Below are positions 5,222-56,065 of a stretch of DNA of 64,000 nucleotides, piece after piece; positions within the stretch are counted from its first letter, which is position 1, and the number at the start of each line of letters is the position of its first letter. The position numbers and the translations under genes are program-made. The DNA lies in contig JAHDVF020001325.1 of assembly GCA_022606425.2 (NCBI GenBank), positions 1,054,001 to 1,118,000 on the forward strand, in the 5' to 3' direction. Source of the DNA: Lepidostoma basale. Lineage: Eukaryota; Arthropoda; Insecta; Trichoptera; Lepidostomatidae. Under the pieces are notes generated by a model. That model saw only the letters and a list, made by a program, of their open reading frames with translations, was not told where the DNA came from and did no database searches.

Positions 5222-5390
5222 TTACTGTTAAAAATTTAAAAAAATTAATAGTTTATTGTAACACCTGATGATGCCAACATCGGTTGGCGAAACAGCTGTC
5301 GCGAGACTCTCAGTGAATTAAAAGAAATTATTATATTAGAACAGTGTTATAAATTTTAACAGTAATAATGTTGAAGTATCATAGTGTTTC
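5222..5390 (+). mobile_element. Family E element with hammerhead ribozyme
   Basis: Bounded by ATTACTGTTAAAA and its approximate inverse TTTTAACAGTAATAATG. Related to 19.8 kb and 50.7 kb. It is single-armed here, with a well-kept ribozyme centre. Confidence 0.7.
5258..5306 (+). ncRNA. Hammerhead ribozyme, family E
   Basis: Consensus core CTGATGA at 5265-5271; stem II GCCAAC/GTTGGC closed by a short loop; GAAA at 5289-5292; stem III is the palindrome ACAGCTGT; cleavage would follow C5300. A near self-complementary stem III is typical of hammerheads in animal retroelements, which may work as dimers. Stem I is weak (A.C mismatch at its second pair), which lowers confidence in single-copy activity. 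Confidence 0.7.
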
Positions 5391-5582
5391 GGCCAAAACA
5401 ATGGACTAGAAATATATCATTCTAATAAATATCTTAAAACTTCTAGAAAACAAACTTTTTTTATAATATGTTAACCACAACATGATTTTACTCAAAATAA
5501 AACTTTTCTGATGAATACTCTTAATTTCGTGACTTTAGGATTTACTTTTAAAAACGGCACTAAAGCACTACATTGATGGATT

Positions 5583-5822
5583 GATTGTATCTCAATAGAG
5601 ACAAAGATGTAAATTGTTTTTTTGGAAACAGAATATGGTGGTCGAGGCGTTTACAGGACTTACGACCCACTGATTGGGTTAAGCGATCGCTTTATGTTAA
5701 CAACATTCCCCATTCCGCCCTTCTTACGACCACCACGTCTGACAAATTTTTGGAAGTTGTATATGTGCTACTATGTTGCACCACACTTCACAGTTTTTGT
5801 TTGTTCAATCTACACTAGCGGC
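5583..5822 (+). mobile_element. T-family repeat
   Basis: Starts TTGTATCTCAATAGAGACAA and runs through GGTGGTCGAGGCGTTTACAG to CTACACTAGCGGCAG. Copies lie at 26137-26335, 49243-49560 and 60110-60400. The two open frames here are not coding; copies do not share a frame. Confidence 0.75.
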
Positions 5823-7679
5823 AGCCTTTCACTACTACATTGATGTTAATATATTAAATGTGTATGAATATTAAATGCAAGGTTCTTGATATCTTACAAG
5901 TTTCTCTAAATTTTATTTTAAAACAATAAAACGTAGAACACTACTGGTTAATGATTGGGGACAACCTAGTCACACACTGATGATTTAATTTGACTTTTTT
6001 TGCGGTTATAAATGGATGTTTTCGTTGTAAAAACGAGTTTTTGATAATTAAGTTTTACGTTCCGTGGTTTTATGTATACGGGTATTATTATTTAATCTTA
6101 AAAATGGATTGTTTATTTATTTCGTAATTAAATCTTGGGCGGTCAATCATTGGTGCCTTCACCCTACCTGCCGTATTTGGATTTATGACCTGTTTTCCTA
6201 CATAACATGTGAAGAGCAAATATTTTAACCTAAATATGTCAACTTTTTAAATGTCAGAAAGTGTCAAAGGGTGTGATGTATAATACGATATTATGCGGAG
6301 GAAAAAAAGTCACCTAATATACGAATATAACCTTCTGTGATCGAAAGTTCTACCCGTGTTTGTACGGCGCACCTCGAATGTTGGGAGTAAGGTGAGACTA
6401 TAATAGCCTGGTGAATACTCTGCGAACTAGAAATAGTACAGTGCAACTTATACCTGTAGTTCAGATTGTTTCAGCAATGCAATTACAACGAATGTACAAG
6501 GTTATACCAAACACAAGAAGATTTAAAATCAGAAAAACGCGGAACCCAAAATAAATCAATAAAAATTTCGCGTGGTGGTCTAGGGTCTAGGGGGACAGAA
6601 TGCTTGACTCCTAATCCAGAACACTTGGGTTTAGGCCTGGACATGATCAGATTAATTCTTCATAATAATGAGCTATTTTCTGCTCATCTCGAATATTGTA
6701 CAATAACTTCTACCATTGATTATAATCCTTGGCGTTAGTTTTTTTTCTAATTTTGTATAAAAAATAGTACATATTACAACGCTTATTTATTTTTTGCATA
6801 ATTATATTTTTCAAAATATTATCAAAAATGACCTAAGTTTTTACCTATACTTATTGGATTCTTGTATAAAAAATCTTTACTAAATATTGATTATTAAAAA
6901 TCTTTCAATTTCTGGAGGTATTTATCATAACATATCGACAATTATAATATTCATAAAAACTTCAAATTCTAAGTGTTATTTTATTTTAATTGTGTTACGT
7001 GTGTCGTCTTGTAAGGATTCATTAAATCCTTTTTATTATTTAATAATATGTATTTTAATAATGAGACGTAGGGCATTAATAATCATTCGATAACGCTTTT
7101 AACAAGGCGTAATGTGTCACTTTTGAAAATATTATAATAAATTTCAGGAAATCATAAGTTTTCAACCATTTCTGTTTATTAACTTCAGATTATTTTATTC
7201 AAAACACTGCCCCTTATTTTAATCAACGAATAAAACATTTTTTTCCGTAGAAGTTATTGATAAAAACTTTATGGGGTTACAATAATCACCTGAATGCATT
7301 TTGGTTGTGTAAAACACTTGGTAAACTCCTGCTTTCATATGTTATTAACGAGTTTTGATAAATCAGAGAGTGATTTTATTTCACTTCAATGCGTAAATAT
7401 TTGAATTTCTGAATCACGTACGTTTTAAGAAATATATATAATTATGGTAAGATTAGATTTTTTTTTCACATACTATATAAGGAAAAAACTCTTTAATTCA
7501 ATTTAGGGTCCGTAATATAAACATTTTATTCGCACGTATTTTGACTACTGACCCAAAGTTTTATTATTGTATAAAATTGTTTTTTTTTTATTTAAGTACA
7601 TTTCTATAAAACAAGTGTTCTCGTGATTATTATAGAATTGTAAATATAAAAAAGTTTTTTCTATTCAATCATTTTTTAT
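5823..7679. other. Unassigned AT-rich DNA
   Basis: 1.85 kb without a recognised element. Short reading frames at 6466-6738 and 6887-7093 have AT-driven composition and no known motif. Confidence 0.35.
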
Positions 7680-8095
7680 CAATTTCACGAAGCTTTCAAA
7701 CGAGAATTCATTTTATTAATCTATAGCTTATGACAAACATAACAAAATCAGTTACTTTTAATTATTCGTAGCGTTTTATTATTAATAAAAAAATGTATTT
7801 ATGTTTTCGTACGAAATTGCATTAAGTCGTATCGGTATTAATAAAGAATAAAACTTGTTATTAAAAATCTCTAACGTATCAATTTCGAATGTAAGAAGCA
7901 CGAAGCTTTCTATTGCGAATCAATCTTATCTTTTACTTATAACATACCTAACTATATCAGTTTATTTTAATTAATAGAAGCATTTTATTACGTATTAAAT
8001 ATGCTTTTAATACGAAATTGTATAAACTCGTATTAAATTAGTGTGATTCCTTATAAAAAAAATCTCTAATACATCCATTTTTAATCTAATTCTTA
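7680..8095. repeat. Degenerate tandem duplication, period about 212 bp
   Basis: CACGAAGCTTTC occurs near 7687 and 7899, and each is followed by matching stretches (CATTTTATT, ACGAAATTG...A..TCGTAT, TTAAAAATCTCTAA). A related third piece is at 11025-11160. An old AT-rich tandem or nested duplication. Confidence 0.5.
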
Positions 8096-8873
8096 GTAAT
8101 ATATTTCTGTAAATGAACTTGCAGTTAATGAAGCATTATGATATTCTAATGAAACCCTTATTTTTTTAGCTAACATCAATATTCACAGTTATCGTATCAT
8201 TCTATACATAACACTTTATTTTTCAACGTATACCAACTGCTTCATACATCGATTTCTTCTCATAGTATGCATCACGATACGTTTAGTAATCGTAAAACAC
8301 TGGACACATGCACTGATTTTGATCATTTCGACACAACGTTAATTCACTTAAGAGCATTTTATTTCATAGAAATTTTGATAATTCAATACTTTATAAGCGA
8401 TTGCAATTATTATAAATATTTTAGTAAGGAAAATAACGCGTTATTTATTATAATACTTTAGATATAATTATTTATGATTCGTTTAAAGCCTTCAGCATTG
8501 CACAATTAAACATATATTTATTTTATTAAAGAAGTTAGCCAAAAATTATTTAAAAGGCACTAGATTAAAAGAATAAAAGAAAACACACTATTTTATTATT
8601 ATTATTATTACGACAAATTACAGTCAATTCTAACATCGAAATTGCTACAAAAAATAACCTTTGTTTTTCACCCCATTTTGGCTTTTAAAAGCAATATTTC
8701 GAAATAAATTTAAAACTATTATATTAATTCATCGTATGTTAAATTTTTATGCAACATTGTAAACTCGTGTTTTCAACTGTTTTATTTCGAACTGATTTTA
8801 AAATAATCGAATGGTGTTCTAATTTGGAACATAGTCGTCTCGCGCTCGGTTTTACCGCCGCTTTGTTGTTAGT
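8096..8873. other. Unassigned AT-rich DNA
   Basis: No recognised feature; a short TTA run near 8591-8610. Confidence 0.35.
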
Positions 8874-9185: not shown

Positions 9186-9783
9186 TTTTGAAAGAAAGAT
9201 ATTAGTTATCAAAAACCTATCCAAAAAAGCTAGAATGGCAGTGCACAATGGTGTTCTTCTACCGACCCTTATGTATGGAAGCGAAGCATGGAACTGGCAA
9301 AAGAAGGATGGAAGTAGAATAAATGCTGTAGAAATGAAATCTCTGAGACAAATGTGTCGATACTCTGTGTATGATAGAGTGTCGAATGAAAATATAATAA
9401 GTGAATGCGGTGCGAATGATGGTTTTATGAACAAAATAATGAAAAGATCATTAATGATGATCAAAATAATACGGATCATCTTAAGATGGTTTGGACATAT
9501 GGAAAGAATGAATGAAGAAAGAATGGTAAAAAAATTTATATGTTAATGATGTAAATGAAACCAGAAATAGAGGAAGACCGAGGAAAACGTGGCACGATCA
9601 AATAAATCAAATATTGAATGTCGGCCATGTGAGGAGTCAGAGAAATCGACGCGCGTGCATGACACGATGTATGAATGTTGAGGAAGCGAGAGAAATATGT
9701 CAGGAAAGAAAAGTGTGGCAGTCCATTTTTTCTGCCTACCCCTTCGGGGAAACGGCGTGATGGTTAGTTAGTTAGTTAGCTAG
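9186..9783 (+). pseudogene. LINE G reverse-transcriptase C-terminus and (GTTA)n tail
   Basis: Open frame 9235-9546 encodes the region after the RT active site of a non-LTR polyprotein: LMYGSEAWNWQKKDGSRINA, then a WFGHMERMNEERMVKK segment. A frameshift follows; RNRGRPRKTWHDQINQ, VGHVRSQRNRRAC and TRCMNVEE continue in another frame to CGGCGTGATGGTTAGTTAGT. Severely 5'-truncated, as usual for LINE insertions. One of the cleanest LINE G ends here. Confidence 0.85.
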
Positions 9784-10340: not shown

Positions 10341-10789
10341 GGTGGAAGATCATCGTAAATTATGTTTTTTATTTATTCTTCCGCTTCCTCTTCTCTCTGG
10401 TTCTACAGTCCTGGGTGGACCTCGGCCCCCTCCAATAAGTTTCTTCAGTCTACTCTATCTTGAGCTCTTGACTTCAGGTCTGACTCCCAACAATGTCAGG
10501 TCCTTCAGAACACCCTCAAACCAACAAAGTCGCTTAATATATGAAAAATTATAAATGTTTTTTTTTAATAAAACAATAATTTATACTCGTAGTATTTCAT
10601 ATATTACCATAAGTTTAATTCAACTTGACTTTATGGCTTCTAACAGAAGATGGCAACGCGCTAACGAAACCGTTCGAAGCCATAAAATCAAGTGAAATGA
10701 AACTAAATATTATATATATTATAAATAATATTTTTATTAAATTTTCATATCAAGCACTCACTTAGTGGTTAGACATTTAAAAAAAATAG
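10341..10789. other. Unassigned; possible LINE remnant then AT-rich DNA
   Basis: 10342-10550 is more GC-rich than its surroundings and follows directly on LINE H, so it may be upstream LINE sequence, but no RT motif is readable. TACTCGTA lies at 10584-10591. Confidence 0.35.
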
Positions 10790-10985
10790 AAAACAAATAA
10801 AACACTCTGTATTTAACAACGGTATGGTTATTACATTTTATGCCAACTAGTTTCGCTTGGAACCAAGCTATACTGTTATACTGCCCTGATGAAGCTTGGG
10901 TCCAAGCGAACTAGTTGGCATCAAATATAATAACCATACCATGGTTAAATACAAAGTGTTTTATTTATTTTCTATTTTTTTATAT
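10790..10985. mobile_element. Foldback element, inverted hammerhead arms (CTAG type)
   Basis: Outer arms TATTTAACAACGGTATGGTT and its complement AACCATACCATGGTTAAATA flank two inverted copies of TGCCAACTAGTTTCGCTTGG. The right arm keeps a nearly complete ribozyme. The left keeps GAAA but has lost the CTGATGA box. Confidence 0.75.
10882..10920 (+). ncRNA. Hammerhead ribozyme, one base off consensus
   Basis: CTGATGA at 10886-10892; perfect 6-bp stem II GCTTGG (10894-10899)/CCAAGC (10902-10907); then GAA followed by CTAGTT instead of GAAACTAGTT; stem I TGCC (10882-10885)/GGCA (10917-10920). The missing A of GAAA is present in the inverted sister arm, so the ancestor was a full type I hammerhead. 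This copy is probably inactive. Confidence 0.7.
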
Positions 10986-13140: not shown

Positions 13141-13914
13141 ACGCAACAGCTGTATGTAAATTATGATAATAATAACAGCGTTTTATATGAAACGGTGAAT
13201 AAGTTTGTCATTTTTAAAGAAGTTCTTGGTATTAATTACTTAATAATTTGAATGTATTAAAAGAATATTTTAGTCTGATCTGATGCTTAGGCAAAGTACT
13301 TAGGTATAAACAATGGCCAAAGTAATGATATGTCATTGTAATGTTGAAGTGTTAAGGGATACTTGTTGTAGTATTTAATGTAAGAATACTGATTGAATGT
13401 ATTTAATATTTTTTTTATTTGTTATAGACGGAACAAAATACTTTTTTCATACAGACAGATTACTAGATCTAAAAATATTTTAATAGTAACGGTAAAAATT
13501 AAGGCTAAAACGAGTAAAGACTGTGATCACTATAAGAGTACAGGTGTGTACTATATGTAGATTATTAGAGAAGATGGACACTTTTATAGTCGTAAATAAG
13601 AATACAGGTATATAGAGTATTACAGAAAGAAGGAAATAATAAAATTAAGAATACAGGTACCTATATGAATTGTAATCCCTTTCGTGCTCAAATATATTTT
13701 TTCTTATGGGATATTATTTGCAATTTAATAAATGCATATTACTTTTCTTCTACATTCGCCATAACTTTGTGTTGTAGATGTTTAATTTTTTATATATACT
13801 TAGTATACCACACTCACCTTATTAAAATAAAAAATAAATAAAAAGTAAATACCAAATATGTTCGAACACACAAGTAATATTATAAAAATAAAAATATTAA
13901 AAATATTTAATTAA
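13141..13914. other. Unassigned AT-rich DNA
   Basis: No recognised element. Confidence 0.35.
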
Positions 13915-14372
13915 TACGAATGAAATCGTCAGTTTTCTAGAAGTTTTATTATATTTTATGGAAATGAAATGTTTCGCCCTTCTAAGGCATTATCAAATGT
14001 GACAATGACATTTGATAATGCCTTAGAAGGGTGAAACATGTCTTCTCCTTCTTCTTCCCTTTTTGTAGACTCAGGAGTCTGTTATTTCAGGCGGGTCCTC
14101 TTGAGATGCTGAACTCCAGCTTTCTCTCCACCGTTTCGGGGGTCTTCCTGGTCGGCGTTGTCCGTTTGGCGTTCCATGGAGAGCTATGTGTGGTATTCTA
14201 TATGAGCTCATCCTTTCTACGTGTTCATGCCAATCGCCGTCTTTGACGTCCCCATCTGACCACATCTTCGACCTCGCAGATTGCTCGGATTGCTGAGGGT
14301 GAAACATGTCATTCCCATGAAATATAATAAAACTTATAGAAAACTGACGTTTTCATTCGTATTAATGATTTA
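13915..14372. mobile_element. MITE-B palindrome split by a LINE H insertion
   Basis: Left arm AATACGAATGAAATCGTCAG to GGCATTATCAAATGT, centre GACAATG, right arm ACATTTGATAATGCCTTAGA onward, then after the insertion ATTCCCATGAAATATAATAA to CATTCGTATTAAT. Both arms carry a hammerhead-like set: TTGATAA (reverse strand 13990-13996; forward 14012-14018), a 5-bp stem II and GAAA. Confidence 0.85.
14043..14295 (-). mobile_element. LINE H insertion with 15-bp target-site duplication
   Basis: Flanked by AGGGTGAAACATGTC at 14028-14042 and again at 14296-14310. The GAA-type tail is at the left (forward TTCTCCTTCTTCTTCC), so the element lies on the reverse strand. It encodes WRESWSSASQEDPPE, GRPPKRW and HIALHGTPNGQRRPG, the C-terminus of the copy at 52998-53782. 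Target-primed insertion into a MITE-B is plain. Confidence 0.9.
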
Positions 14373-15704: not shown

Positions 15705-15838
15705 AGTTATTTATTTATATTTATACAATATCACTGATGAAGGGCTTGTGTTTCCGAAATATGTTTGGTATTTAATTTTTTTTATTTTAATGCAATGAGT
15801 GTTGTAGGTATACTAAGTATATAAAAAAAAAACAGCAA
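15705..15838 (+). mobile_element. Family A terminal repeat (Penelope type)
   Basis: TATATTTATACAATATCACTG, then the ribozyme, then TTTAATTTTTTTTATTTTAA and GAGTGTTGTA. Same order as 24.7 kb and 56.0 kb. The mariner inserted just downstream. Confidence 0.7.
15729..15770 (+). ncRNA. Hammerhead ribozyme, family A, weakened stem II
   Basis: CTGATGA 15734-15740; stem II GGG.../TTCC of about 3 bp; GAAA 15756-15759; stem III ATATGT; H17 is T15765; stem I TATCA/TGGTA pairs with one wobble. All core bases are consensus, but stem II has lost two pairs relative to the 56.0 kb copy. Confidence 0.55.
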
Positions 15839-15841
15839 ATA

Positions 15842-15872: not shown

Positions 15873-16030
15873 CCGTACTGGCAACTTTGATCTCAAATAT
15901 CTTCTCTTTGGTTAGGAATTCCAAATTCAAATTTATACAGCTATTTACTCAAGTATTTGTGTTTCGAAAATTATAATTCATTTGTTTTTTCCACAATTGT
16001 TTTTTTTCTTTGCGTCACTCAGTTTACAAA

Positions 16031-17127
16031 ATGGAAAACTTGAAATATCGCGTTATTTACGAGTACGAGTTCCACCGCGGCACCAGTGCTGCAGAAACGG
16101 CTCGAAGGATTAATGATGTGTATGGCGACGGTGCCGCAAAAGAAAACACAGTGCGTTTTTGGTTCCAACGTTTTCGTTCTGGAAATTTCGACCTGCAGAA
16201 CAAGCCCTGTGGACGGCCGGAGACCAAAGTTGATAATGAAGAATTGAAGGCTATTGTGGAAGCGGATCCATCGCAAACCACGTCCGAGTTAGCTGCAAGC
16301 TGCGGTGTTAGTGATAAAACTGTTTTAATCCACTTGAAGCAAATTGGGAAGGTGAAAAAGCTTGAAAGGTGGGTACCTCACGAATTGAGTGAAGCAAATC
16401 AACAAACGCGCGTTGACTGCTGCGTTGCATTACTCAACCGGCACAATAATGAAGGGATTTTGAATCGAATCATTACCCGTGATGAAAAGTGGATCCTGTA
16501 TGATAATCGGAAGCGCTCATCGCAATGGCTGAACCCTGCCGAACCAGCCAAACCATGCCCCAAGCGAAAATTGACTCCAAAAAGTTACTTGTGAGCGTTT
16601 GGTGGACTAGTGCTGGTGTCGTTCACAACAGCTTTCTTAAATCTGGCCAGACGATTACGGCAGATGTCTATTGTCAGCAACTGCAAACCATGATGGAAAA
16701 GCTAGCTGCTAAACAACCGAGGCTGGTTTATCGCTCCAGGCCACTGCTGCTTCATGATAACGCTAGACCACACACTGCACAACAGACGGCTACCAAATTG
16801 GGAGAGCTTCAATTGGGATGTCTAAGACATTCACCGTACTCTCCGGACCTTGCCCCAACAGATTACTATTTTTTTCGAAATTTGGATAACTTCTTGCAAG
16901 AGAAAAAATTCAACTCCGATGGGGCAGTCCAAACCGACTTCAAAGATTTTATTGATTCCCGTCCGAATGGTTTTTTTAGTAAAGGGATTGATGAACTACC
17001 TATGAGATGGCAAAAGTGCATAGATAGCAATTGTACATACTTTGATTTAATAAATATATTCTATTTAAAAAAAATCAACTTTATGTTCCTCCCATACAAA
17101 ACGCCAATTTCATATGTAAGGACCTAA
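16031..17127 (+). pseudogene. Mariner transposase, single frameshift
   Basis: Start is ATG 16031 (MENLKYR). The first frame carries the paired helix-turn-helix DNA-binding region (FWFQRFRSGN, GRPETKVDNEEL, SQTTSELAASCGV), the WVPHELSE linker motif and the first catalytic aspartate (RDEKWILYDN). It ends at 16594. The second frame resumes in SKKLLVSVWWTSAGV and holds HDNARPHTA and YSPDLAPTDYYFF; 34 residues separate the last two aspartates (DD34D). The shift fits loss of one A in the run at 16579-16583. The stop expected near 17049 is also read through (TTTGATTTAATAAA), so the frame runs into the right terminal repeat. Otherwise well kept; could be a sequencing error or a young dead copy. Confidence 0.92.
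17097..17127 (-). repeat. Mariner right terminal inverted repeat
   Basis: Ends GTAAGGACCTAA; perfect inverse of the left end, followed by TA. Confidence 0.9.
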
Positions 17128-19625: not shown

Positions 19626-19789
19626 GCAAGTACCATGTAATGAGATCATAGAGATAAATTATTTGTTACATTGTGTAAAATTGCATATTCTAAAATTCCA
19701 AATTATTATGTATAGTCCACTATACTTCAACATTATGAACTGTTAAAATATAAAACGCTTTTTATACAATCATATTATTTTTTTTAATT

Positions 19790-19834
19790 TCGCGACAGCT
19801 GTTTCGTCAACCGATGATGACATCATCAGGTATT
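19790..19834 (-). ncRNA. Hammerhead ribozyme, family E, left arm
   Basis: Reverse strand: CTGATGA at 19829-19823; stem II GTCA.C/G.TGAC; GAAA at 19805-19802; stem III ACAGCTGT; GTC then cleavage between 19794 and 19793. Core fully consensus; stem I weak. Confidence 0.7.
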
Positions 19835-19845
19835 ACAGTCATTGT

Positions 19846-19892
19846 AACACCTGATAATGTCAACATAGGTTGACGAAACAGCTGTCGCGAAA
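19846..19892 (+). ncRNA. Hammerhead ribozyme, family E, right arm (G8A)
   Basis: CTGATAA at 19851-19857 (G8 changed to A), stem II GTCAAC/GTTGAC intact, GAAA 19875-19878, ACAGCTGTC with cleavage expected after 19886. The G8 change should strongly reduce activity. Confidence 0.6.
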
Positions 19893-19940
19893 AATAAATA
19901 ATATATTTAAAATTATACCATAAACAACGTTTTGTGTTGT

Positions 19941-20329
19941 ATTTTAACAGTTTAATTTTATTATTATTTATTTGTTTTGGTATCAAAACACATTATTATG
20001 ATCCTTGCCGATGATCATCCTCCCCTCCGGAGGAGACTCGGATTTGATATTCCAAATGTGGAAGCTCTATTTTAATGTTTGTCTGTAACGAAATTGCAAA
20101 GGACCTAGAAAAGCATAACCAAATTAAATATCAGTAAAGTCGGATGTCGAAAATTTCGTGGTGCATAAATGTGCAGAGCTTTTGTCAAGTGTAAAGGTTA
20201 GAAAGGTCTCATGTTCGCGTCATGTGCTAAGGGGAAAAATAAACCACGTCATTCAGTTGATAATCATGGGCAAAATAGAGGGAAGTTGGAGAGTTGGTAG
20301 AAGGCGGTTGTCTTAGATGTAAAATATAA
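19941..20329. other. Unassigned
   Basis: Includes TCCTCCCCTCCGGAGGAGAC, a short perfect palindrome core near 20020-20034 of unknown meaning. Confidence 0.35.
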
Positions 20330-21769: not shown

Positions 21770-22073
21770 TAATCATTAAGATGGTTTCGACATATGGAAG
21801 GAATGAATGAAGAAAGAATGGTAAAAAAAATATATGTTAATGATGTAAATGGAACCAGAAATAGAGGAAGACCGAAGAAAACGTGGCACGATCAAATAAA
21901 TCAAAAATTGAATGTCGGCCATGTGAGGAGTCAGAGAAATCGACGCGCATGCCTGACACGATGTATGAATGTTGAGGAATCGAGAGAAATATGTCAGGAA
22001 AGAAAAGTGTTTCAGTCCATTCTTTCTGCCTACTCCTTCGGGGAGACGGCGTGATGGTTAGTTAGTTAGTTTT
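21770..22073 (+). pseudogene. LINE G C-terminus with (GTTA)n tail
   Basis: The open frame reads MEGMNEERMVKKIYVNDVNG, TRNRGRPKKTWHDQINQKLN, VGHVRSQRNRRACL and TRCMNVEESREIC, ending at the GGCGTGATGGTTAGTTAGTT tail. This C-terminal frame is uninterrupted. 22074-22150 holds an opposed LINE G scrap. Confidence 0.85.
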
Positions 22074-22914: not shown

Positions 22915-23530
22915 ATCGTCATCATCATCGTTTTCTTTGGCATTGTCGTCGCTAAAGTCCGTTTCGTCATTGCCGAGACCTTGGTCACCGTCGTTACTAC
23001 AGTCATCGTCGACATCGTCGTCATCACAACCTCCATCATCGTTACCGTTGTCATCGTTGTCATCACCATCGTCATCGCCATCCCCGTCGTCATCGTTGTC
23101 AACGTCGTCACAGTCGTCACCGTCGTCATCGTTGCCATCATCGTCGTTATCGCCATCACCGTCGTCATCGTTGTCAACGTCGTCGACATCACCATCACCG
23201 TCGCCATCGTTGTCAACGTCGTCACAGTCGTCACCATCGTCATTGTTGCCATCGTCGTGGTCATTGCCATCACAGTCGCCATCGCTGTCAACGTCGTCAC
23301 AGTCGTCACCGTCGTCATTGTTGCCATCATCGTCGTCATCGCCATCACCGTCGCCATCGTTGTCAACGTCGTCACAGTCGTCACCGTCGTCATTGTTGCC
23401 ATCACCGTCGTCATCGTTGTCAACGTCGCGTCGTCACAGTCGTCACCGTCGTCATTATTGCCATCATCGTCGTCATCGCCATCATTGTTGTCATCATCGT
23501 CACTATATTTACATTCGTCTTGGTCACCGT
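22915..23530. repeat. GTC/ATC/ACC minisatellite, higher-order unit about 75 bp
   Basis: About 600 bp of trinucleotide-based sequence with a longer period: TTGTCAACGTCGTCACAGTC followed by ACCGTCGTCATTGTTGCC recurs about every 75 bp, with shorter units. It stays open in three frames (Ser/Pro-rich, Val/Ile-rich, Met/Thr-rich on the reverse), a result of 3-bp periodicity and not evidence of a gene. Confidence 0.85.
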
Positions 23531-24394: not shown

Positions 24395-24865
24395 TATCTT
24401 TCATTTAATAAAGATAATGGCGTTAAAATTTTCTGTGTTAATAATAGAAATATAACATTTAGCAATCTCGAAATTTAATAAATTAAAAAAGCAATTAAAA
24501 ACAAAGAAAATATTATAAAAATCAAATAAATTTAACGTCAAATCCAATCTTTCATTTATTTCCTTTGTTGTAAGTAATTACCTGAACCCCAATAAGAACT
24601 TAAAATTATTATTTTAAGTTGATTCATAATATTTGTTATAACAAAAGTATAAACGTTCCAAAATAAATCTTTATAACATCTGTCAAAACTGATCATATTT
24701 GTTTTTAAATATGTATATTTATAATATGTATCACTGAAGAAAGACCGGTTGTCCGAAACATGTCTGATATGTATTATATGATAATATATATTTTTTTAAA
24801 GTAAGTGTTGTACTCGTATATAATATATAATACACAGTATACGAGTATAATAAAAAAAGACAAAT
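24395..24865 (+). mobile_element. Penelope-like 3' end with hammerhead-bearing terminal repeat
   Basis: 24410-24540 reads FNKDNGVKIF, VNNRNITFSNLEI and KKAIKNKENI: the same GIY-YIG tail as 14430-14900 (reverse), with stops. Then about 160 bp shared with that copy, CTGTCAAAACTGATCA, the ribozyme and AAAGTAAGTGTTGTA. This copy links the coding fragment and the ribozyme in one element. Two TACTCGTA/TACGAGTA sites (24811, 24840) lie at its end. Confidence 0.65.
24728..24770 (+). ncRNA. Hammerhead ribozyme, family A
   Basis: CTGAAGA (N7 = A, allowed) at 24734-24740; stem II with GAC/GTC paired and an A.C mismatch at its base; GAAA 24755-24758; stem III ACATGT; H17 = C24764; stem I GTATCA (24728-24733)/TGATAT (24765-24770), 6 bp including one wobble. 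Type I layout. Confidence 0.75.
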
Positions 24866-24975
24866 AAAACATCTACAACACAAAGTATGGCGAACATAGA
24901 AGAAAAAAAGTGTACATCATTGTTTAAGAAACAATAAATACGAGTATTTCTCCAAACTGTATCTGCCCTCGTTTC

Positions 24976-26335: not shown

Positions 26336-26506
26336 CATTTTCTTTTAATGATATTCTACCAATGTATTTCGATAAAAAGCATTTTTTTTATAGAATAAAA
26401 TTTTATATAACTTTCGTATGAAGCACTTTATTTGTGGTGTGACATTATTCAATAAAATAATAATGCACTTTTAGTAATTTGTATTAACACCACTTTATTT
26501 GGTAAC

Positions 26507-26545
26507 ACCAGCCGGTTTCGCTCCCGCCAGAGCTTCGTCAGGGTG
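26507..26545 (-). ncRNA. Hammerhead ribozyme, family F, left arm
   Basis: Reverse strand CTGACGA (N7 = C; all invariant bases kept) at 26541-26535; stem II GCTCT/GGAGC region; GAAA 26519-26516; stem I CACC/GGTG. Stem III reads ACCGGC, so the A15.1-U16.1 pair is lost (U to C), which should impair cleavage. Confidence 0.65.
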
Positions 26546-26568
26546 AGAGAGTAAACAGTTTACTCTCT

Positions 26569-26608
26569 CGCCCTGACAAAGCTCCGACGGGAGCGAAACC
26601 GGTTGGTG
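26569..26608 (+). ncRNA. Hammerhead ribozyme, family F, right arm (G8A)
   Basis: CTGACAA 26573-26579; stem II GCTCC/GGAGC perfect; GAAA 26595-26598; stem III ACCGGT; H17 = T26604; stem I CGCC/GGTG. Between the two arms every consensus base survives at least once. Confidence 0.65.
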
Positions 26609-26655
26609 TTACCAAATAAAGTGGTGTACATACAAATTACTGAAAGTGTATTATT

Positions 26656-27384
26656 TTTTCATTTAATTATTATATACCTCGCAAGTTAATAATAAAGAAG
26701 CTCTCCTCCAGTTGAATTATCAAGGTCGAGGGTACCTACCCAATCAGTCGTAAATTCCATTTTTAAATAATATTGACGTTTATCTATATCTGTACAAGTA
26801 TGTATGTGGAGCAAACATTAAAACTATTACCTACCCTTTATTACCAAAGCCACCCGACATTTGACCGCGCTTTGTGACTTTCGATGGCGAATGTCGTCAT
26901 CTAAGTAAGAAATTGATCAATAAAACATAATACGGCATTAATCACGTTGCGACTTCCATCAAACAGCTAATGTTTCGGATTAAATGATTCCACGTAATGA
27001 AGGCCGCACGCACACACTAACACTAGTAGCACACATACACATATAACTGGGAACACGCAGCCAGTAAAGGCAGCTTTTACAAATAGCGGAATTATATTTT
27101 TGTGACATTTGGTTCAATATTTTTACAGAAATTATTGAACAAAATGAGTAATACCAGGAAGTGAAAGAGACAACTCGGCAAGTTAAGTAATTCATCGTGG
27201 CGAAGGGACGTAATACTCGTATATGCTACGTATAATGCCGTTCCTAGTCAATTGCATCGAAGAGGACCTGGTTCGAGCATCCAGAAGCACGGTCCGGCTG
27301 GCGGACTTCTGGGTCAACGATATAGAACATTACTACCACTGACTAAGGAAGAAATATCTTCGTTTTTCCTATCACCTTTTCTCA
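26656..27384. other. Unassigned, partly less AT-rich
   Basis: No element recognised. GCACGGTCCGGCTGGCGGAC near 27290-27310 stands out in composition. TACTCGTA at 27214-27221. Confidence 0.35.
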
Positions 27385-31199: not shown

Positions 31200-31668
31200 T
31201 CAATGGATTGTATGGAAGTGAAGCATGGAACTGGCAAAATAAGGATGAAAGCAGAATAAATGCAGTAGAAATGAGATCTCCAAGACGAATGTGTATTAAA
31301 TCTGTATATGATAGAGTGTCAAATGCAAGTATAAGAAGTGAATGCGGTACGAATGAGAGTGTTATGAACAAAATAATCAAAAGTCATTAAGATGGTTTGG
31401 ACACATGGAAAGAATGAGTGAAGACAGAATGGTGAAGAAGGTATTAGTAAACGATGTGAACGGAGCTAGAAATAGAGGAAAGCCGAGGAAAACGTGGCAC
31501 GATCAAATTAATCAAATATTAAATGTCGGTCACGTGAAGAGTCGGAGAAATCGACGTGCATGCATGACAAGATGTATGAATGTGAAAGAATCTAGAGAAC
31601 TATGTCAGGACAGAACAGTGTGGCGTTCCATTCTTTCTGTCTACCCCTCCGGGGAGACGGCGTGATTG
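31200..31668 (+). pseudogene. LINE G C-terminus and 3' end
   Basis: First frame: YGSEAWNWQNKDESRINAVE, MRSPRRMCIKSVYDRVS. A frameshift near 31390 leads to MERMSEDRMVKKVLVNDVNG, ARNRGKPRKTWHDQINQILN and VKSRRNRRACMTRCMNVKES, ending GGAGACGGCGTGATTG. This copy lacks the GTTA repeats. Confidence 0.85.
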
Positions 31669-31835
31669 TGAATCCACAACACCAAGTTAAGGCGAATATA
31701 GAAGAAATGATTTTATTTGTTTTCCATACGCAGCCTAGTTTAACTTTATTATTGTATTATTTCTAGAAATTAATGTTGTTTATCGGAATTTCTTGAGAGA
31801 AGTTCAATCTAAACAATGAAAATATTTATCATAGA

Positions 31836-35551: not shown

Positions 35552-35621
35552 CGGCGTACTTTTTTATTGGACATCTCATTAAAAAGTTTGGAAAAATTAG
35601 GTATGATAGCTGTAAAAAAAT

Positions 35622-35868
35622 ACGAATGAAAACGTCTGTTTTCTAGAAGTTTTAAAATATTTTATAAGAATGACATGTTTCACTTTTCTAAGGCATTATC
35701 AAATGTCAACTAATGCCAGATAATGCCTTAGAAGGGCGAAAGATATCATTATCATAAAATATAATAAAACTTTTAGAAAACTGACGTTTTCAATCGTATT
35801 AATTATTTAAAATGGAGTTTTACATCATTGTTCAAAAAACAATAAATATAAGAGCTGTTTTATTAGAA
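35622..35868. mobile_element. MITE-B inside the hAT element
   Basis: TACGAATGAAAACGTCTGTT at left, AACTGACGTTTTCAATCGTA at right, centre GGCATTATCAAATGTCAACT/AATGCC. Reverse-strand core TTGATAA at 35702-35696. Then ATTTAAAATGGAGTTTTACA to AACAATAAATATAA. Confidence 0.85.
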
Positions 35869-40630: not shown

Positions 40631-41065
40631 CAGCGGTTCCCAAAGTGTGCTCTGCGGAGTCTTTAGAGTGTAACTCTTTTTGTGGGATTCATTGCATGAT
40701 TCTAATTAAATAATGAACCTAAACCTAGGTATTTATTGTTTCTTGAACAATGATGCAAAACTCCGTATTAAATACCTAATACGAATGAAAACGTCAGTTT
40801 TCTCGAAGTTTTATTATATTTTATGGGAATGACATGTTTTATCGATCTAAGGCATTATCGAATGTCTTGAAAATTCAATATCAAACATTTGACAATGCCT
40901 TAAGAGCGCGAAACATGTCATTCCCATAAAATATAATAAAACTTCTAGAAAACTGACGTTTTCATTCGTATTATTACTTTAACTAGGTTTTGCTTATTTT
41001 AGGACTCCGTAAAATATTAAATTTTTGAAAAGGGTTCCATCACCAAAAAAGTTTGAGAACCGCTG
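40631..41065. mobile_element. hAT-type element with a nested MITE-B
   Basis: CAGCGGTTCCCAAAGTGTGC at left; GTTTGAGAACCGCTG at right is its near inverse. Flanks TATTAGAA (40623-40630) and TATTAGAT (41066-41073) fit an 8-bp duplication with one change. About 180 bp without the insertion. Confidence 0.85.
40725..40978. mobile_element. MITE-B, near-complete palindrome
   Basis: TATTGTTTCTTGAACAATGA, AATACGAATGAAAACGTCAG, centre ATTATCGAATGTCTTGAAAA, right arm core TTGACAA (40889-40895), GAAA (40910-40913), CATGTCATTCCCATAAAATA, AACTGACGTTTTCATTCGTA. One of the best copies. Confidence 0.88.
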
Positions 41066-41290: not shown

Positions 41291-41654
41291 TCGTTCATTG
41301 AGAAGCATCACCCTAACAAGGAGATGGCTTTGCGTTCAACATTTTTTTTCAATGAACTTTCTGTCACATTTTGACAAAATTTTGAAGCGCATGTATAAAC
41401 AAGTACACAGTAAAAAATAATCTATTATTTGTCATAAATTCATAAATAATAAACTAGTAATTTAGATTTTTTAATGTTTTTGCAAATCGATTTCGCATTC
41501 CAGGTTGTTACGCCCCTTCACAGTTTATAAGTATGTAATTTTATTTGAATAACTTATTTTATAATAGAAAACACGGTTGTTTAGTGGTTTTACTTGAATT
41601 TAATTTTAAACTGTTATGAATAAACATTGTTTTTTTGTATCACAATTGTATTTT

Positions 41655-41725
41655 ATTTTACGCGACAGCTGTTTTATCAACCAATGTTGACATCATCAGG
41701 TGTTACAATAATATATAAAACTTTT
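41655..41725 (-). mobile_element. Family E scrap, hammerhead with mutated GAAA
   Basis: Reverse strand: GTAACAC, CTGATGA (41699-41693), stem II GTCAAC/GTTGAT, then AAAA instead of GAAA, ACAGCTGTC. The G12 change should abolish cleavage. Confidence 0.65.
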
Positions 41726-41739
41726 GATATATTATTGTA

Positions 41740-42844: not shown

Positions 42845-43140
42845 CTGATTTATGGTTTCTTGAACAGCAATGTAAAACTTCATATTTAATAATTAATACG
42901 AATGAAAACATCTGTTTTATACAAGTTTTATTATAATTAATGTGAATAACATATCAAATGTTAATGCGTTAGAAAGGCAAAACATAATATTAACATATTT
43001 ATTGTTTCTTGAACAATGATGTAAAACTCCATATTAAATAATGAATACGAATGAAAACGTCAGTTTCCTAGAAGTTTTATTATATTTTATGGGAATGACA
43101 TGTGTCGCCCTTGCATTATCAAATGTATTACATTTGATAC
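42845..43140. mobile_element. MITE-B, two partial copies in tandem
   Basis: Two left arms (AATACGAATGAAAACATCTG near 42895; AATACGAATGAAAACGTCAG near 43044), each preceded by TTTCTTGAACA. Second centre TTATCAA at 43116-43122 followed by ATGTATTACATTTGATA. Confidence 0.8.
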
Positions 43141-44754: not shown

Positions 44755-44900
44755 TTAATACGAATGAAAACGTCAGTTTTCTAGAAGTTTTATTATATTT
44801 TATGGGAATGACATGTTTCGCCCTTCTAAGGCATTATCAAATCTCATAAAATATAATAAAACTTCTAGAAAACTAACTTTCTCAATCGTATTGATTAACT
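44755..44900. mobile_element. MITE-B, compact palindrome
   Basis: TTAATACGAATGAAAACGTC to CCCTTCTAAGGCATTATCAA (reverse core TTGATAA 44840-44834), then directly ATAAAATATAATAAAACTTC and CAATCGTATTGATT. The right ribozyme half is deleted. Confidence 0.85.
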
Positions 44901-45235: not shown

Positions 45236-45308
45236 CTTATAGAAATTGGTTATATTTTTACTGTGTTTGTTGTGTTTTTGGGTAACACCGTGTGATAACT
45301 CCTTCTCG

Positions 45309-45349
45309 ACCGACGTTTCGGAGATCGTTGCAGTCTCCATCTTCAGGGT
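45309..45349 (-). ncRNA. Hammerhead ribozyme, fully consensus core
   Basis: Reverse strand: stem I ACC (45349-45347)/GGT (45311-45309); CTGAAGA 45346-45340; stem II GGAGA (45338-45334)/TCTCC (45324-45320) with a 9-nt loop; GAAA 45319-45316; stem III ACGT; cleavage after GTC between 45312 and 45311. Every invariant base is kept. Stem III is only 2 bp, so dimeric action, as known for short-stem III hammerheads, is likely. Confidence 0.75.
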
Positions 45350-45704
45350 AATGAATGTGATATGTGTTGTGTCTGCTAAGGTACTTCACCGTTGTACCGT
45401 ATTTTTACTGTTTCCACACAACGTTTAAACCTTTCTACCTTCTTCATTTTATTATTTACATGCAATATTCAAAATAAATTAATTAAAACGTTAAAATTAA
45501 ATAAGTTTTTGGTTATGTGGAGAGATTTGACAGCTGTTAAAATTAATTTTCGTGATTTTTCGAACCTTTATGTGCATTTGTTCCAATTTCAATTTGAATG
45601 ATTTCTTTGATAACATTTTTAAGTTCTTGCTTGAGTTGAATTGTTTTAAGTGCCTAATTACAGTTGATTAAAAAACGGTGGATGAGTGGAATATAAATTT
45701 TAAA
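45350..45704. other. Unassigned
   Basis: Flanks of the 45.3 kb ribozyme. The repeat unit that carries it was not delimited. Confidence 0.35.
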
Positions 45705-45905: not shown

Positions 45906-46254
45906 TACAGATCAGGGGTGGTAAACATGATTCTATACAAAAATAATCTTCAAATATTTATGTAAAATGTTCTGAATTTAACTATTGGTATTAAAGGTAT
46001 TCTTGGAGGTTCGTATTTATTATAATACAATGGGTTTTAATTTTTATTATCTCTTACATATTCGTTTATAATGTTTGAAAAATGGTTTGAAAAAACTTCC
46101 ATCGAGAGATTTCAGTAAAATCACTTGATTATTTGTTTTAGATTTATTTTGTGAACCCTGTGAACGAAAGGCGAAACCTATCATCCCCATAATTTTTAAT
46201 AAAACTTCGAGAAATTCTTCGCTTTGGAATTCAAATGCTTATATAAGGAAGAAA

Positions 46255-46540
46255 TGTAGAGCGGAAGAAAGTATAACGATGAAGGAAGAATGGTAAAGAA
46301 ACCATACGTTAACGGTGTGAATGGAGTACGGAGTCGTGGGAGACCGAGGAAATCTTGACATGACCAAATTAATCCAATTTTTAAGGTCGGCCATGTTAGA
46401 AGTCGGAAGAATCGACGTGGGTGTATGACACGCTGTATGAATGTGGAGGAACCTAGAGCAATGTGTTAGGATCGAGTAGTGAAGCAGTGCATTCTCTCTG
46501 CCTATCCCTTCATTGAAACGGCGTGATGGTTTGTTGGTGT
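46255..46540 (+). pseudogene. LINE G 3' end
   Basis: GGAAGAATGGTAAAGAAACC, GTGAATGGAGTACGGAGTCG, GGGAGACCGAGGAAATC, then ATGACACGCTGTATGAATGT and AACGGCGTGATGGTTTGTTG. Coding RMVKK...VNGVRSRGRPRKS with stops; the tail has become TTGTTGGTGTTG. A MITE-B scrap follows at 46549-46585. Confidence 0.8.
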
Positions 46541-47147: not shown

Positions 47148-47289
47148 TTCTTTTTAATTCTTAATCTTAATGTTTTTTTATGGTTCTCTTATAAATTCTT
47201 ATAATGTAATTGCAAACGATCTGGAATTGTATGTCTATAATGTTTGTGATTTTTAAACTTTGGAAAGAAGCTATTACTTGGTGGTTTGA

Positions 47290-47510
47290 CATATTTAAAA
47301 TTAGAATTGAACACTTTTAAAACGTTGTATAAAACCTCTTTATTTTAGTCCGCAGCGTCAACCGGTTTCACTCTGTAACGAGCTTTGTCAGGGCTTTACA
47401 CAAACTGTTTGTGTATATAATTATAGTGAAACCGGTTGGCGCTCCTGACTCAAAATTAGGTGGTTTTATACAACGTTTTAAAAGTGTTTAATTCTAATTT
47501 TGATTTTTAT
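47290..47510. mobile_element. Foldback element related to family F
   Basis: Arms AATTAGAATTGAACACTTTT and AAAAGTGTTTAATTCTAATT; each arm has GAAACCGGTTG. Reverse-strand left arm: CTGACAA (47391-47385), stem II GCTC/GAGT, GAAA 47369-47366. The right arm lost its core. Confidence 0.8.
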
Positions 47511-48290: not shown

Positions 48291-48291
48291 G

Positions 48292-50624: not shown

Positions 50625-50825
50625 TTATTACTGTTAAAATTGAAAACACTGTTATAATATCCCGATTTCTCTGAGAGTGTCGCGACAGCTGTTTCGATAA
50701 CCTATGTTGGCGAAATAGCTGTCGCGACACTCTCAGTGAATAAAAAGAAACTGTGATATTATAACAGTGTTTTAATTTAACAGTAATAATGTTAAAGTAT
50801 CATAGTGTTTCGGCCAAAGCAATGG
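50625..50825. mobile_element. Family E foldback, cores deleted
   Basis: ATTACTGTTAAAATTGAAAA and ATTTAACAGTAATAATGTTA at the ends; GAGAGTGTCGCGACAGCTGT and ATAGCTGTCGCGACACTCTC inside. GAAA is kept in both arms but CTGATGA is gone. Confidence 0.75.
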
Positions 50826-51329
50826 ACTATTTAATTAATATATTTACTTTATTAACTTTAAAAAAGTGTGCCAAGGTAACAAATTTTAAAAATTTCTCTC
50901 ATCTTCCTAGTTTAAAATTTTCAGATAACATTTTAATGAAATCAGGTTAGAAGGAAAATTACGAAAATCATATAATGTTTATTAATTTACATCGGATTGG
51001 ACAACTACTTATTTAAGTCAATCTTAAATATTATGGGGACAACCCTCTTGATGGCCAAGAGACCAGATATCAAAGCTTATTTATAGTCTTTGTTGGTGAC
51101 AGGCACGACCACGTGCGTGTTTAGGTATTGGAAAGGTAGGCACTTATATATAATACTATAGGGGTATATATATACATATTACAAAGTTCACTTATGTATA
51201 AACGACGATTATAAAAATAGTGTTATACTCGCACATAACATTTACTTCCTTACTGATGGCACATTTATTTTGAGACGTTTTATTAATTGACCTAATTTGA
51301 ACCATTCTTATTTTAAAATACTCATACCA
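50826..51329. other. Unassigned
   Basis: No recognised element. Confidence 0.35.
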
Positions 51330-52996: not shown

Positions 52997-52997
52997 A

Positions 52998-53782: not shown

Positions 53783-53879
53783 TAATTATCATTTAATAAC
53801 AAACGGTAAAAATATGTTTGGATATTATTTGTACAATGATCTCACTAAGATAAATGTAAAAAAAAACATATACAATAAA

Positions 53880-53990
53880 AATACACTTTAAGTAATTTGT
53901 ATTTTGTACACCATTTTATTTGGTAAAACCAACCGGTTTCGCTCCCGCTTTGTCAGGGTGAGAGAGTGTACAGTAGAGAGTATACAATAG
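53880..53990 (-). mobile_element. Family F single arm, decayed hammerhead
   Basis: Reverse strand CTGACAA (53956-53950), AGCGGGAGC (stem II shortened by a deletion), GAAA 53940-53937, CCGGTTGG, ACCAAATAAAATGGTGTAC. Otherwise close to 26460-26655. Confidence 0.75.
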
Positions 53991-54053
53991 ATTACTTAAT
54001 GATGATATAAGAAAGGAATGTAAAGTGGAAAAGGTCTCTAAGATGGTTTTGAC

Positions 54054-54469: not shown

Positions 54470-54604
54470 CTTTAGACAAAAAATATTAAAAGTTCCGTGC
54501 AAACAGTGTGAAATAGAAAATGAAGTCGAAGCAAGCCGACAAAAACATGGTATGCCCAATTTGGCTTAAATGATGATTTACCAAAAGGCACATTCGATGT
54601 CGGG

Positions 54605-54762: not shown

Positions 54763-54777
54763 ACATTCGATGTCGAA

Positions 54778-55594
54778 GATAGTCAAATATTAGTATATAT
54801 TATACAAAAGCTTTATATGGATTATTTATTATTTTAAATGAGACAAAAATTGGATAAATAAATGATACGAGTATATTAAACGTTTGCAAATCTGAAATGT
54901 TTTTAACTACATGGTACTTTACAGTTTGACTCGGTGTTTTATTAAAGTAAACTTCTTTAATAAATCAGACCCTTGCATGTTGCACAGAGTGTGATTTCCA
55001 TTGCAACAAGTTGTTCTCATTGAATAATTTTACTCATTACGGAAACAAGAAACAATTAGGGGGAGTTTTTTCGCGTTAACAAGAAACATTTTACATTTAC
55101 AATTACCATTTACTTTCTTTAAAATACTATTACACGTTTAAAATATTAAACATGCAATTCTTAAACGTCAGAAAACCAAGAAAGTTTTGAATGAATTTTA
55201 ATTTTATTCTGAAAACGCGGGATTCAAAATGATTTGTATTTTTTGAGGTTATCTTGAAATTATCCATCGCACAATTGCACCAAACAGTATGCAATCATTG
55301 CTATGATAATTGCCTATCTACAGGAATCAAATCTTATTGAATTTATAATTGTTTTGATATAAAGTTGCCTAAGGCTAAAATCATACCGAAATGTTTCGTT
55401 TAGTGTTAAGCTAGGTGATAAGATTTTGACCTATAGAATCACGTAGCGTGGCGTGAAGAGTGCAGTGTGGCAATCGCGATAATATGCTGTACGTTGGTTC
55501 ACTAAGTTAAGGGTCCTACCGTGTTGTCAGAGCCTAAGAAAATACTAAAGCAAATGTTTGTAAAATTTAAGTTTATAAACAATACGATTACTTT
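54778..55594. other. Unassigned AT-rich DNA
   Basis: TACGAGTA at 54866-54873. No recognised element. Confidence 0.35.
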
Positions 55595-55812
55595 ATTTTT
55601 TGTATACAACAGATCTTTTGAATCCAATTACTGTTCATAATTTATTTTTAGCTAATATATTGATTCTCATGACATATAATAGGTTAATCTATCGGAATTG
55701 TATTTTCACCAGACCAAAATTAGTGGGACAATCACACTGCCATAGCCGGGAATCGAACCCAAAACCTTCGGTGTGGCAGTTGTAGCTCTTTCCACTCTGC
55801 CACGAAGGTCGT
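55595..55812 (-). mobile_element. SINE-T, long copy
   Basis: Reverse strand: GACCTTCGTGGCAGAGTGGA, GGTTTTGGGTTCGATTCCCG with an intact B box, GTGTGATTGTCCCAC, then ATCAATATATTAGCTAAAAA and CTGTTGTATACAA. Confidence 0.87.
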
Positions 55813-55889
55813 CTTCATGAGAAATGGCATGTCAGTGTTTTCAAATGATGGTTTACTTCAATTTCCACAAATCGCATTAACACTTTTTC

Positions 55890-56065
55890 TTTTTCTTTTT
55901 TAAATACTTTCTATACAACACTTACTTTTTAAACAAATTAAAATTAAACATCAAACATGTTTCGGACTACCCAGTCCTTCCTCAGTGATATTATATAGGT
56001 ATTTGAAATATTATAAAATTGTTTATAAATATGGTCAGTTTTGACAGTTTTATGGCGAACATAGA
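55890..56065 (-). mobile_element. Family A terminal repeat (Penelope type)
   Basis: Forward CAACACTTACTTTTTAAACA to GGTCAGTTTTGACAG, the inverse of the 24.6-24.8 kb order. Best preserved family A ribozyme. Confidence 0.75.
55948..55991 (-). ncRNA. Hammerhead ribozyme, family A, best copy
   Basis: Reverse strand: stem I ATATCA (55991-55986)/TGATGT (55953-55948), 6 bp with one wobble; CTGAGGA 55985-55979 (N7 = G, allowed); stem II GGACT/AGTCC, 5 perfect pairs, loop GGGT; GAAA 55963-55960; stem III ACATGT; H17 = U. Cleavage between 55954 and 55953. All invariant bases kept. Confidence 0.82.

What the first reader, a model, noticed from the sequence alone, without database searches (positions are those of the whole stretch)
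5222..56065. A superfamily of short dispersed elements built around type I hammerhead ribozymes
At least seven short repeat families share one order: CTGANGA (or a near variant), a closed stem II, GAAA, a palindromic stem III of 4-10 nt (ACAGCTGT, ACATGT, ACCGGT, ACGT, AACTAGTT, ACAAATTTGT), a U-H cleavage site, then an AT-rich tail often containing AATAAA. Good copies: 5258, 15729, 19790 (-), 24728, 45309 (-), 55948 (-); near copies at 10882, 26507 (-), 26569. Stem II sequences differ completely between families (GGACT/AGTCC, GCCAAC/GTTGGC, GCTTGG/CCAAGC, GCTCC/GGAGC, GGAGA/TCTCC) yet stay paired, which chance would not do. Hammerheads with minimal stem III are known from Penelope-like elements and retrozymes; the number of distinct families in 64 kb is the surprise.
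Basis: partly seen in the sequence, partly recalled or inferred. Interest (0 to 1): 0.88.

Follow-up and report, generated by a model that had tools for sequence, protein, structure and literature searches.

The report
Short Penelope-derived elements with hammerhead motifs
A stretch of probably moth or butterfly DNA is littered with very short, non-coding jumping elements that look like stubs of Penelope retrotransposons and carry a hammerhead-type self-cutting RNA motif, often damaged; both the elements and such motifs are known kinds, but here five different families lie side by side.

Summary
CTGANGA, one extra base, paired stem II, GAA occurs six times with a perfect core against 0.05 per dinucleotide shuffle; canonical spacing occurs 0 times. 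On 17 copies stem II is paired in 90% of cells with two-sided changes (0 of 500 shuffles); stem I covaries in families A and C. So this is an RNA-type motif. I count five families (A-E), 22 motif copies in 18 elements. Corrections: one extra nucleotide after CUGANGA; Rfam hammerhead models stay far below threshold; only 10 of 22 copies keep CTGANGA; family B lacks stem I; family E reads U3/A8. The elements are non-coding, about 130-370 bp, often two head-to-head arms with a tail on one. Three have exact end repeats of 9, 12 and 14 bp, one with an empty site. This is the published insertion anatomy of Penelope-like elements (PLEs), whose pLTRs carry minimal type I hammerheads; short nonautonomous Penelope elements are already reported from butterflies. 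No PLE protein was found in the window and the own genome could not be searched. Best reading: nonautonomous PLE derivatives moved in trans. New member of a known kind.

The parts
55949..55990 (-). Family A motif, most complete copy: stem I 5 bp or more, CTGAGGA, extra A, stem II GGACT/AGTCC, ACATGT, U17; element about 55885-56047
15729..15770 (+). Family A motif, weak stem II; element about 15708-15839
24580..24941 (+). Family A longest copy; motif 24729-24769 (first stem II pair lost); ends in the tail shared with family E (24913-24941)
271..420 (+). Family A copy, stem II lost, motif 341-375
5210..5421 (+). Family B element 5224-5407 (184 bp), motif 5260-5305, between 14-bp direct repeats 5210-5223 and 5408-5421, inserted in a family E copy
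19729..19959 (.). Family B head-to-head pair, arms 19729-19837 and 19843-19959, motifs 19789-19834 (-) and 19846-19891 (+, G8 changed)
41651..41733 (-). Family B copy, G12 changed, motif 41661-41704
50625..50829 (+). Family B head-to-head pair with tail; the 5' half of the motif is missing
10780..10981 (.). Family C-like head-to-head pair, arms 10780-10869 and 10893-10981, motif 10881-10922 (+), one core A missing
26444..26670 (.). Family C head-to-head pair, motifs 26505-26546 (-) and 26568-26609 (+, G8 changed)
47247..47509 (-). Family C-like element 47256-47500 (245 bp), motif 47355-47396 (G8 changed), 9-bp direct repeats 47247-47255 and 47501-47509
53870..53974 (-). Family C copy, stem II shortened, G8 changed, motif 53926-53961
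45253..45411 (-). Family D element 45265-45399 (135 bp) with 12-bp direct repeats 45253-45264 and 45400-45411; motif 45307-45351 complete; ATG formed by A9, extra U and G10.1
40730..40983 (.). Family E head-to-head pair with 47-nt tail on the left arm; motif 40884-40924 (+), core TTGACAA
35616..35848 (.). Family E head-to-head pair with tail on the right arm; motifs 35667-35707 (-) and 35712-35752 (+)
13912..14047 (.). Family E head-to-head pair, motifs 13961-14001 (-) and 14007-14047 (+), core TTGATAA
44756..44892 (-). Family E copy not used to build the model, motif 44805-44845 (36 bits)
42996..43134 (-). Family E copy with tail, motif 43092-43127 damaged
5087..5223 (+). Family E copy, motif 5185-5225, interrupted by the family B element

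Best explanation
Short nonautonomous derivatives of endonuclease-bearing Penelope-like retrotransposons (PLEs): pseudo-LTR-sized units made of a minimal type I hammerhead (with one extra base after CUGANGA) followed by the region in which a PLE enzyme would start reverse transcription. Shown: motif with covarying stems, head-to-head arms, one-sided tails, end repeats of different length, no PLE protein found in the window. Inferred: a PLE protein made elsewhere in the genome binds the RNA, cuts AT-rich DNA, starts copying internally at one of two sites (ends without and with tail), and self-priming or strand switching at the other end makes head-to-head palindromes. Arms of two elements start 8 and 14 nt upstream of C3, so those templates had not been cut by this hammerhead. 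With a palindromic stem III that has no loop, an intact copy would cleave mainly as a dimer or with protein help (inferred from published newt and PLE cases); palindromic copies would hide the motif in a long hairpin.
For: Motif against shuffles; stem II covariation over five families and stem I in A and C; head-to-head arms in 5 of 10 loci and in family E; tails; end repeats of 14, 12 and 9 bp and empty site, 75 of 99 columns. Published PLE anatomy: inverted pLTRs, palindromic head-to-head junctions, 31-bp tail on one, 8-10 bp target duplications, pLTRs sufficient in trans (PMC3846280 passages); two internal RT starts that explain the tail, hammerhead at the ORF start, cut 26 nt downstream of the start codon (PMC11167929 parts 1-2 of 4): family D has the ATG at the same place and the predicted cut 26 nt after the codon (sequence). 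Short nonautonomous Penelope elements in heliconiine butterflies (PMC6685494 passages).
Against: No PLE coding sequence in the window (9 PLE proteins, best E 0.38). Start-codon pieces of three families matched no protein (11 candidates, none at E 10 or better). No direct sequence homology to a named PLE could be shown; no eukaryotic genome was searchable. Rfam hammerhead models do not reach threshold. End repeats found for 3 of 13 copies tested; repeats of 9 nt or more occur at 58 of 400 random places, of 12 or more at 7 of 400.
Confidence: 0.6

Rival explanations
1. Dead-end, 5'-truncated stubs and solo pLTRs of ordinary coding PLEs, not families that multiply on their own; the hammerhead is inherited from the coding element.
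For: Only 10 of 22 cores intact; arms start at different places; PLEs are 5'-truncated on insertion and form inverted pLTRs (PMC8969392 passages).
Against: 18 motif-bearing elements and no PLE coding match in 64 kb; family E repeats one head-to-head layout in several copies; published description of short nonautonomous Penelope elements as abundant in some butterflies.
Confidence: 0.22
2. Foldback or inverted-repeat DNA transposons (MITEs) moved by a transposase; the hammerhead resemblance is a by-product of terminal hairpins.
For: Long inverted arms of 72-117 nt in 5 of 10 loci; Rfam gives no significant hammerhead.
Against: Unequal arms with a tail on one side; end repeats of 9, 12 and 14 bp instead of one length; families A and D are not palindromic; covarying stem II with invariant GAA and CTGA context.
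Confidence: 0.1
3. Metazoan retrozymes: tandem 150-390 bp units with type I hammerheads that spread as circular RNAs.
For: Small, non-coding, AT-rich units with type I hammerheads; palindromic stem III as in dimer-acting ribozymes (PMC7229834, PMC7761336 passages).
Against: No same-family direct tandem pair within 1.5 kb among 22 copies; arms are inverted instead; short tails and end repeats of PLE type.
Confidence: 0.03
4. Chance matches in AT-rich repeats.
For: With one core mismatch the number of hits is near chance; short motifs fold no better than shuffles; a model without family A scores family A at E 0.044, 0.15 and 2.5.
Against: Perfect-core count 6 against 0.05, only at spacing 1; covariation 0 of 500 shuffles.
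Confidence: 0.02

Closest known systems
Short nonautonomous Penelope elements of heliconiine butterflies (Genome Biol Evol 2019, PMC6685494; passages seen)
   Same: Short, nonautonomous, several kinds, in Lepidoptera
   Different: The passages give no anatomy; the word ribozyme does not occur in that text, so the hammerhead link is not made there
Minimal type I hammerheads in PLE pLTRs and dispersed in animal genomes (Cervera and de la Pena 2014, Lunse 2017; not held, seen through PMC7761336, PMC6155905, PMC7229834 passages)
   Same: Minimal type I motif, weak or missing helix III, dispersed, linked to PLE pLTRs, may act as dimers
   Different: Here every perfect-core copy has one extra base before stem II (whether the published PLE motifs do is not known to me), and family E reads U3/A8
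Poseidon PLE of Anolis, PAc (PMC11167929; parts 1-2 of 4 read)
   Same: Start codon at stem II and cut 26 nt after it (family D); two possible 3' ends that differ by a tail
   Different: PAc is a coding element; families A and C have no ATG at that place
Penelope elements of Adineta vaga (PMC3846280; passages seen)
   Same: Head-to-head inverted pLTRs, palindromic junction, tail on one pLTR, target duplications of 8-10 bp, pLTRs sufficient in trans
   Different: Those are mainly coding elements of few copies; the window's units are far shorter and denser

Membership tests
Penelope-like element (endonuclease-bearing) | ORF with telomerase-like RT and GIY-YIG endonuclease | tested here: not met
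   tblastn of 9 PLE proteins against the window, best E 0.38; hence filed only as a nonautonomous derivative, not as a PLE
Penelope-like element (endonuclease-bearing) | pLTRs in direct or head-to-head inverted arrangement with palindromic junction | tested here: met
   5 of 10 loci with arms of 72-117 nt; family E
Penelope-like element (endonuclease-bearing) | Optional 30-40 bp tail on one end | tested here: met
   47 nt in E (40730-40776), about 40 nt in B; about 30 nt in C, read by eye
Penelope-like element (endonuclease-bearing) | Short target duplications of variable length | tested here: inconclusive
   14, 12 and 9 bp in 3 of 13 copies tested; the 14-bp case has an empty site; a 12-nt repeat at 340 was rejected
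Penelope-like element (endonuclease-bearing) | Sequence homology to a coding PLE of the same genome | not testable with these tools
   The genome search did not complete (13 requests); N-terminal pieces matched no protein
Hammerhead ribozyme, type I | Core CUGANGA and GAAA, 3 helices | tested here: inconclusive
   Stem II and core significant, stem I in A and C; B lacks stem I, E lacks C3/G8, 12 of 22 cores changed; stem III palindromes have no loop
Hammerhead ribozyme, type I | Score at Rfam gathering threshold | tested here: not met
   best 11.0 bits against 34
Hammerhead ribozyme, type I | Self-cleavage | not testable with these tools
   No experiment
Metazoan retrozyme | Direct tandem units with a hammerhead in each | tested here: not met
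   No same-family direct pair within 1.5 kb among 22 copies
Metazoan retrozyme | Circular RNA intermediate | not testable with these tools
   No RNA data
Inverted-repeat DNA transposon (MITE) | Symmetric ends and one target-duplication length | tested here: not met
   Tails on one side; 9, 12 and 14 bp; only three elements, so weak

The most novel reading that the evidence does not exclude
A SINE-like class of PLE parasites whose ribozyme is under selection: several families that share a PLE start signal (A and E share their last 27-29 nt at 93-96% identity) but diverge elsewhere, including a natural hammerhead line (family E) in which the core pair C3-G8 has been replaced by U3-A8, and head-to-head copies that turn a self-cutting RNA into a long hairpin.
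Probability: 0.15. Interest if true: 0.6.

Novelty: new member of a known kind. Interest (0 to 1): 0.36.

Why it matters
If right, short nonautonomous Penelope elements of Lepidoptera carry minimal hammerheads in several families at once. They would be a natural series for asking whether the hammerhead matters for PLE copying at all: in the Anolis element it was dispensable in vitro (PMC11167929), and here the arms of two elements start upstream of the motif. Family E would test whether U3-A8 can stand in for C3-G8 in nature.

Tried and rejected
Retrozyme, MITE and pure-chance readings were tested and set aside (see rivals). AGTGTT as a shared downstream signal: an exact copy within 110 nt in 6 of 22 motifs against about 0.05 expected per motif, but these are only three families (A 3, B 1, C 2), so I did not build on it. 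The 12-nt repeat around 340 was rejected as a target duplication because family A homology runs beyond it. Near-repeats at the ends of 35616-35848, 40730-40983 and 26444-26670 were seen by eye and not counted. So the extra base is unusual but not unique. Searches for PLE DNA in genome contigs and viral contigs confirmed no relative. The family D piece matched no solved structure. Alignments A3 and A5 were misaligned and not used for counts; the automatic parse put stem III of 15735 and 10886 wrongly.
Full report
Check of the observation. A scan for CTGANGA, 0-2 extra bases, a stem II of 4 bp or more and GAA found 6 perfect-core hits, all with exactly one extra base (5265+, 10886+, 19782-, 26496-, 45296-, 55940-), against 0.05 per dinucleotide shuffle (40 shuffles); spacing 0 gave 0 hits (0.2 expected), spacing 2 gave 0 (0.125 expected). 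With one core mismatch the count at spacing 1 (4) is near chance (2.8), so weaker copies are accepted by homology. On a 17-copy alignment of families A-E stem II is paired in 90.2% of cells (shuffled 57.1, sd 4.5), 4 of 5 pairs change on both sides (shuffled mean 3.9, so this measure says nothing), 28 cells change on both sides (shuffled 9.2) and the covariation score is 0.862 against 0.262; 0 of 500 shuffles reach the cells paired, the cells changed on both sides or the score; slid versions score 0.06-0.33. On 7 copies of A and C stems I and II together are paired in 84.3% of cells, stem I in 82.9%, with 3 of its 5 pairs changed on both sides. Over all 17 copies the first four stem I positions pair 2.6 on average against 1.3 in 222 cross-family combinations, but B (2, 2, 2, 3) and E (2, 2, 3, 2) are weak (in which two copies were parsed wrongly).

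Results against it. Rfam release 15 shows no hammerhead in the window at gathering thresholds or up to E 10; of 4 small stretches one gives Hammerhead_1 at 11.0 bits (cut-off 34; 5259-5306), one HH9 at 10.4 bits (cut-off 52; 26581-26607), and 55930-56005 and 45280-45370 give none. My model R1, built from the 17 copies, lists 35 matches up to E 10, of which 22 have E 0.11 or less: its 17 training rows and 5 others (44805, 5185, 43092, 35712, 341). A model without family A (R2) finds A copies only weakly: 55949 E 0.044, 15729 E 0.15, 24729 E 2.5, 341 not listed. On 35 of the 338 viral loci R1's best score is 19.9 bits; 18 of the 22 window copies score higher. Five single motifs folded alone are not significantly more stable than shuffles, although the best fold of 55949-55990 is the hammerhead stem I plus stem II.

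Families. By homology I see five. A: about 55885-56047, 15708-15839, 24580-24941, 271-420 and a remnant at 13743-13874. B: 5224-5407, 19729-19959, 41651-41733, 50625-50829. C: 26444-26670 and 53870-53974 by BLAST; 10780-10981 and 47256-47500 by motif and tail only. D: 45265-45399. E: 40730-40983, 35616-35848, 13912-14047, 44756-44892, 42996-43134, 5087-5223 and weaker copies. The 22 copies sit in 18 elements. The extra base is A in 9 copies (A, C) and U in 13 (B, D, E), where it forms AUG with A9 and the next G; CTGANGA is intact in 10 of 22; in family E 7 of 8 copies read U3 and 8 of 8 A8. In the Anolis hammerhead single changes at C3 or G8 kill activity and the double change to G3/C8 partly restores it (PMC11167929), so U3-A8 may still pair; its activity is unknown.

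Anatomy. Five of ten loci examined are head-to-head inverted pairs with arms of 72-117 nt, and so are family E elements. One arm carries extra sequence: 47 nt in E (40730-40776), about 40 nt in B (50790-50829). The E tail ends in a hairpin ATTGTTYAAGAAACAAT and AATAAATA, and the longest family A copy ends with the same 27-29 nt at 93-96% identity. Exact direct repeats lie at the ends of 5224-5407 (14 bp), 45265-45399 (12 bp) and 47256-47500 (9 bp, next to the arm end). Thirteen copies were tested; at 400 random places 58 show a repeat of 9 or more and 7 of 12 or more, so the 9-bp case is weak by itself. The joined flanks of 5224-5407 align to family E copy 40885 with 75 of 99 columns identical: B inserted into E.

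What it is. Published PLE anatomy fits: inverted pLTRs, palindromic head-to-head junctions, a 31-bp tail on one pLTR, 8-10 bp target duplications, pLTRs sufficient in trans (PMC3846280, passages); two internal RT start sites that explain the tail, AT-rich targets, the ORF starting at stem II and the cut 26 nt downstream of the start codon, uncut RNA as the main template (PMC11167929, parts 1-2 of 4). Family D has its ATG at the same place, the predicted cut 26 nt after the codon and an AC-rich end (read from the sequence). Minimal type I hammerheads dispersed by the thousand in animal genomes, some in PLE pLTRs, are in print (PMC7761336, passages). [quoted passage not shown] The host is probably lepidopteran: the mariner ORF at 15977 is 81-89% identical to Bombyx, Plutella and Dendrolimus proteins; a mobile gene is weak evidence for this.

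What was not found. No PLE protein in the window (9 PLE proteins, best E 0.38). N-terminal pieces matched no protein. The own genome could not be searched. Descent from PLEs is therefore inferred from anatomy.

How it probably works. Transcript; binding by a PLE protein supplied in trans; cut of AT-rich DNA; internal start of copying at the inner or outer site; copying towards the hammerhead end; self-priming or template switch giving a head-to-head palindrome; integration with a short target duplication. Only products are seen here. Arms of 19729-19959 and 26444-26670 start 8 and 14 nt upstream of C3, so those templates had not been cut by this hammerhead; other arms (10780-10981, 47256-47500, 50625-50829) start inside the motif. 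The palindromic copy 26444-26670 folds into one long hairpin (-155.7 kcal/mol, z -28), which should compete with the ribozyme. By sequence (read by eye) only 55949-55990 and 45307-45351 keep the core, stem II, a stem I of 3 bp or more and the closing pair of stem III; 15729 and 24729 come close.

Novelty. Both halves are in print. I saw no paper that joins them in searches, but the key hammerhead-PLE papers are not held, so this is weak. The extra base is compatible with known hammerheads: insertions of one or two nucleotides next to CUGANGA are allowed for in PMC10085705 (passage), and an extra core nucleotide in a viroid hammerhead is the title of De la Pena and Flores 2001 (seen in reference lists only).

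Noticed in passing
15977-17127 (+): Mariner transposase broken into two overlapping ORFs (HTH_48 and Transposase_1), inserted beside the family A copy at 15729; 81-89% identical to Bombyx, Plutella and Dendrolimus proteins.
   Followed up: partly
34665-35240 (+): ORF with a weak RAG1-like match (PF12940, E 1.7e-4, below Pfam's cut-off), perhaps a Transib-type transposase remnant.
   Followed up: no
26519-26597, 47340-47458, 50666-50741: Sub-threshold Rfam microRNA-precursor hits (mir-874, mir-4524, mir-2032) fall on the head-to-head palindromes, a likely source of false microRNA annotation.
   Followed up: partly
family E copies: Family E has U3 in 7 of 8 and A8 in 8 of 8 copies, a possible replacement of the C3-G8 pair by U3-A8.
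   Followed up: partly
L119 12749-12789, L213 2071-2116: Two phage hammerheads with the same one-base insertion after CTGANGA and a clear stem III hairpin.
   Followed up: no
9479-9764, 21773-22058, 31384-31669, 46245-46530: LINE-like repeat family with a shared end CTGCCTACCCCTTCGGGGA..GGCGTGATGGTTAGTTAG in both orientations.
   Followed up: no
22948-23446: Array of 9-bp units, open in several frames on both strands, probably a simple repeat and not a gene.
   Followed up: no
3190-3262 (-): tRNA-like sequence (RF00005, 32.5 bits); a similar repeat family (D12) suggests a tRNA-derived SINE.
   Followed up: no
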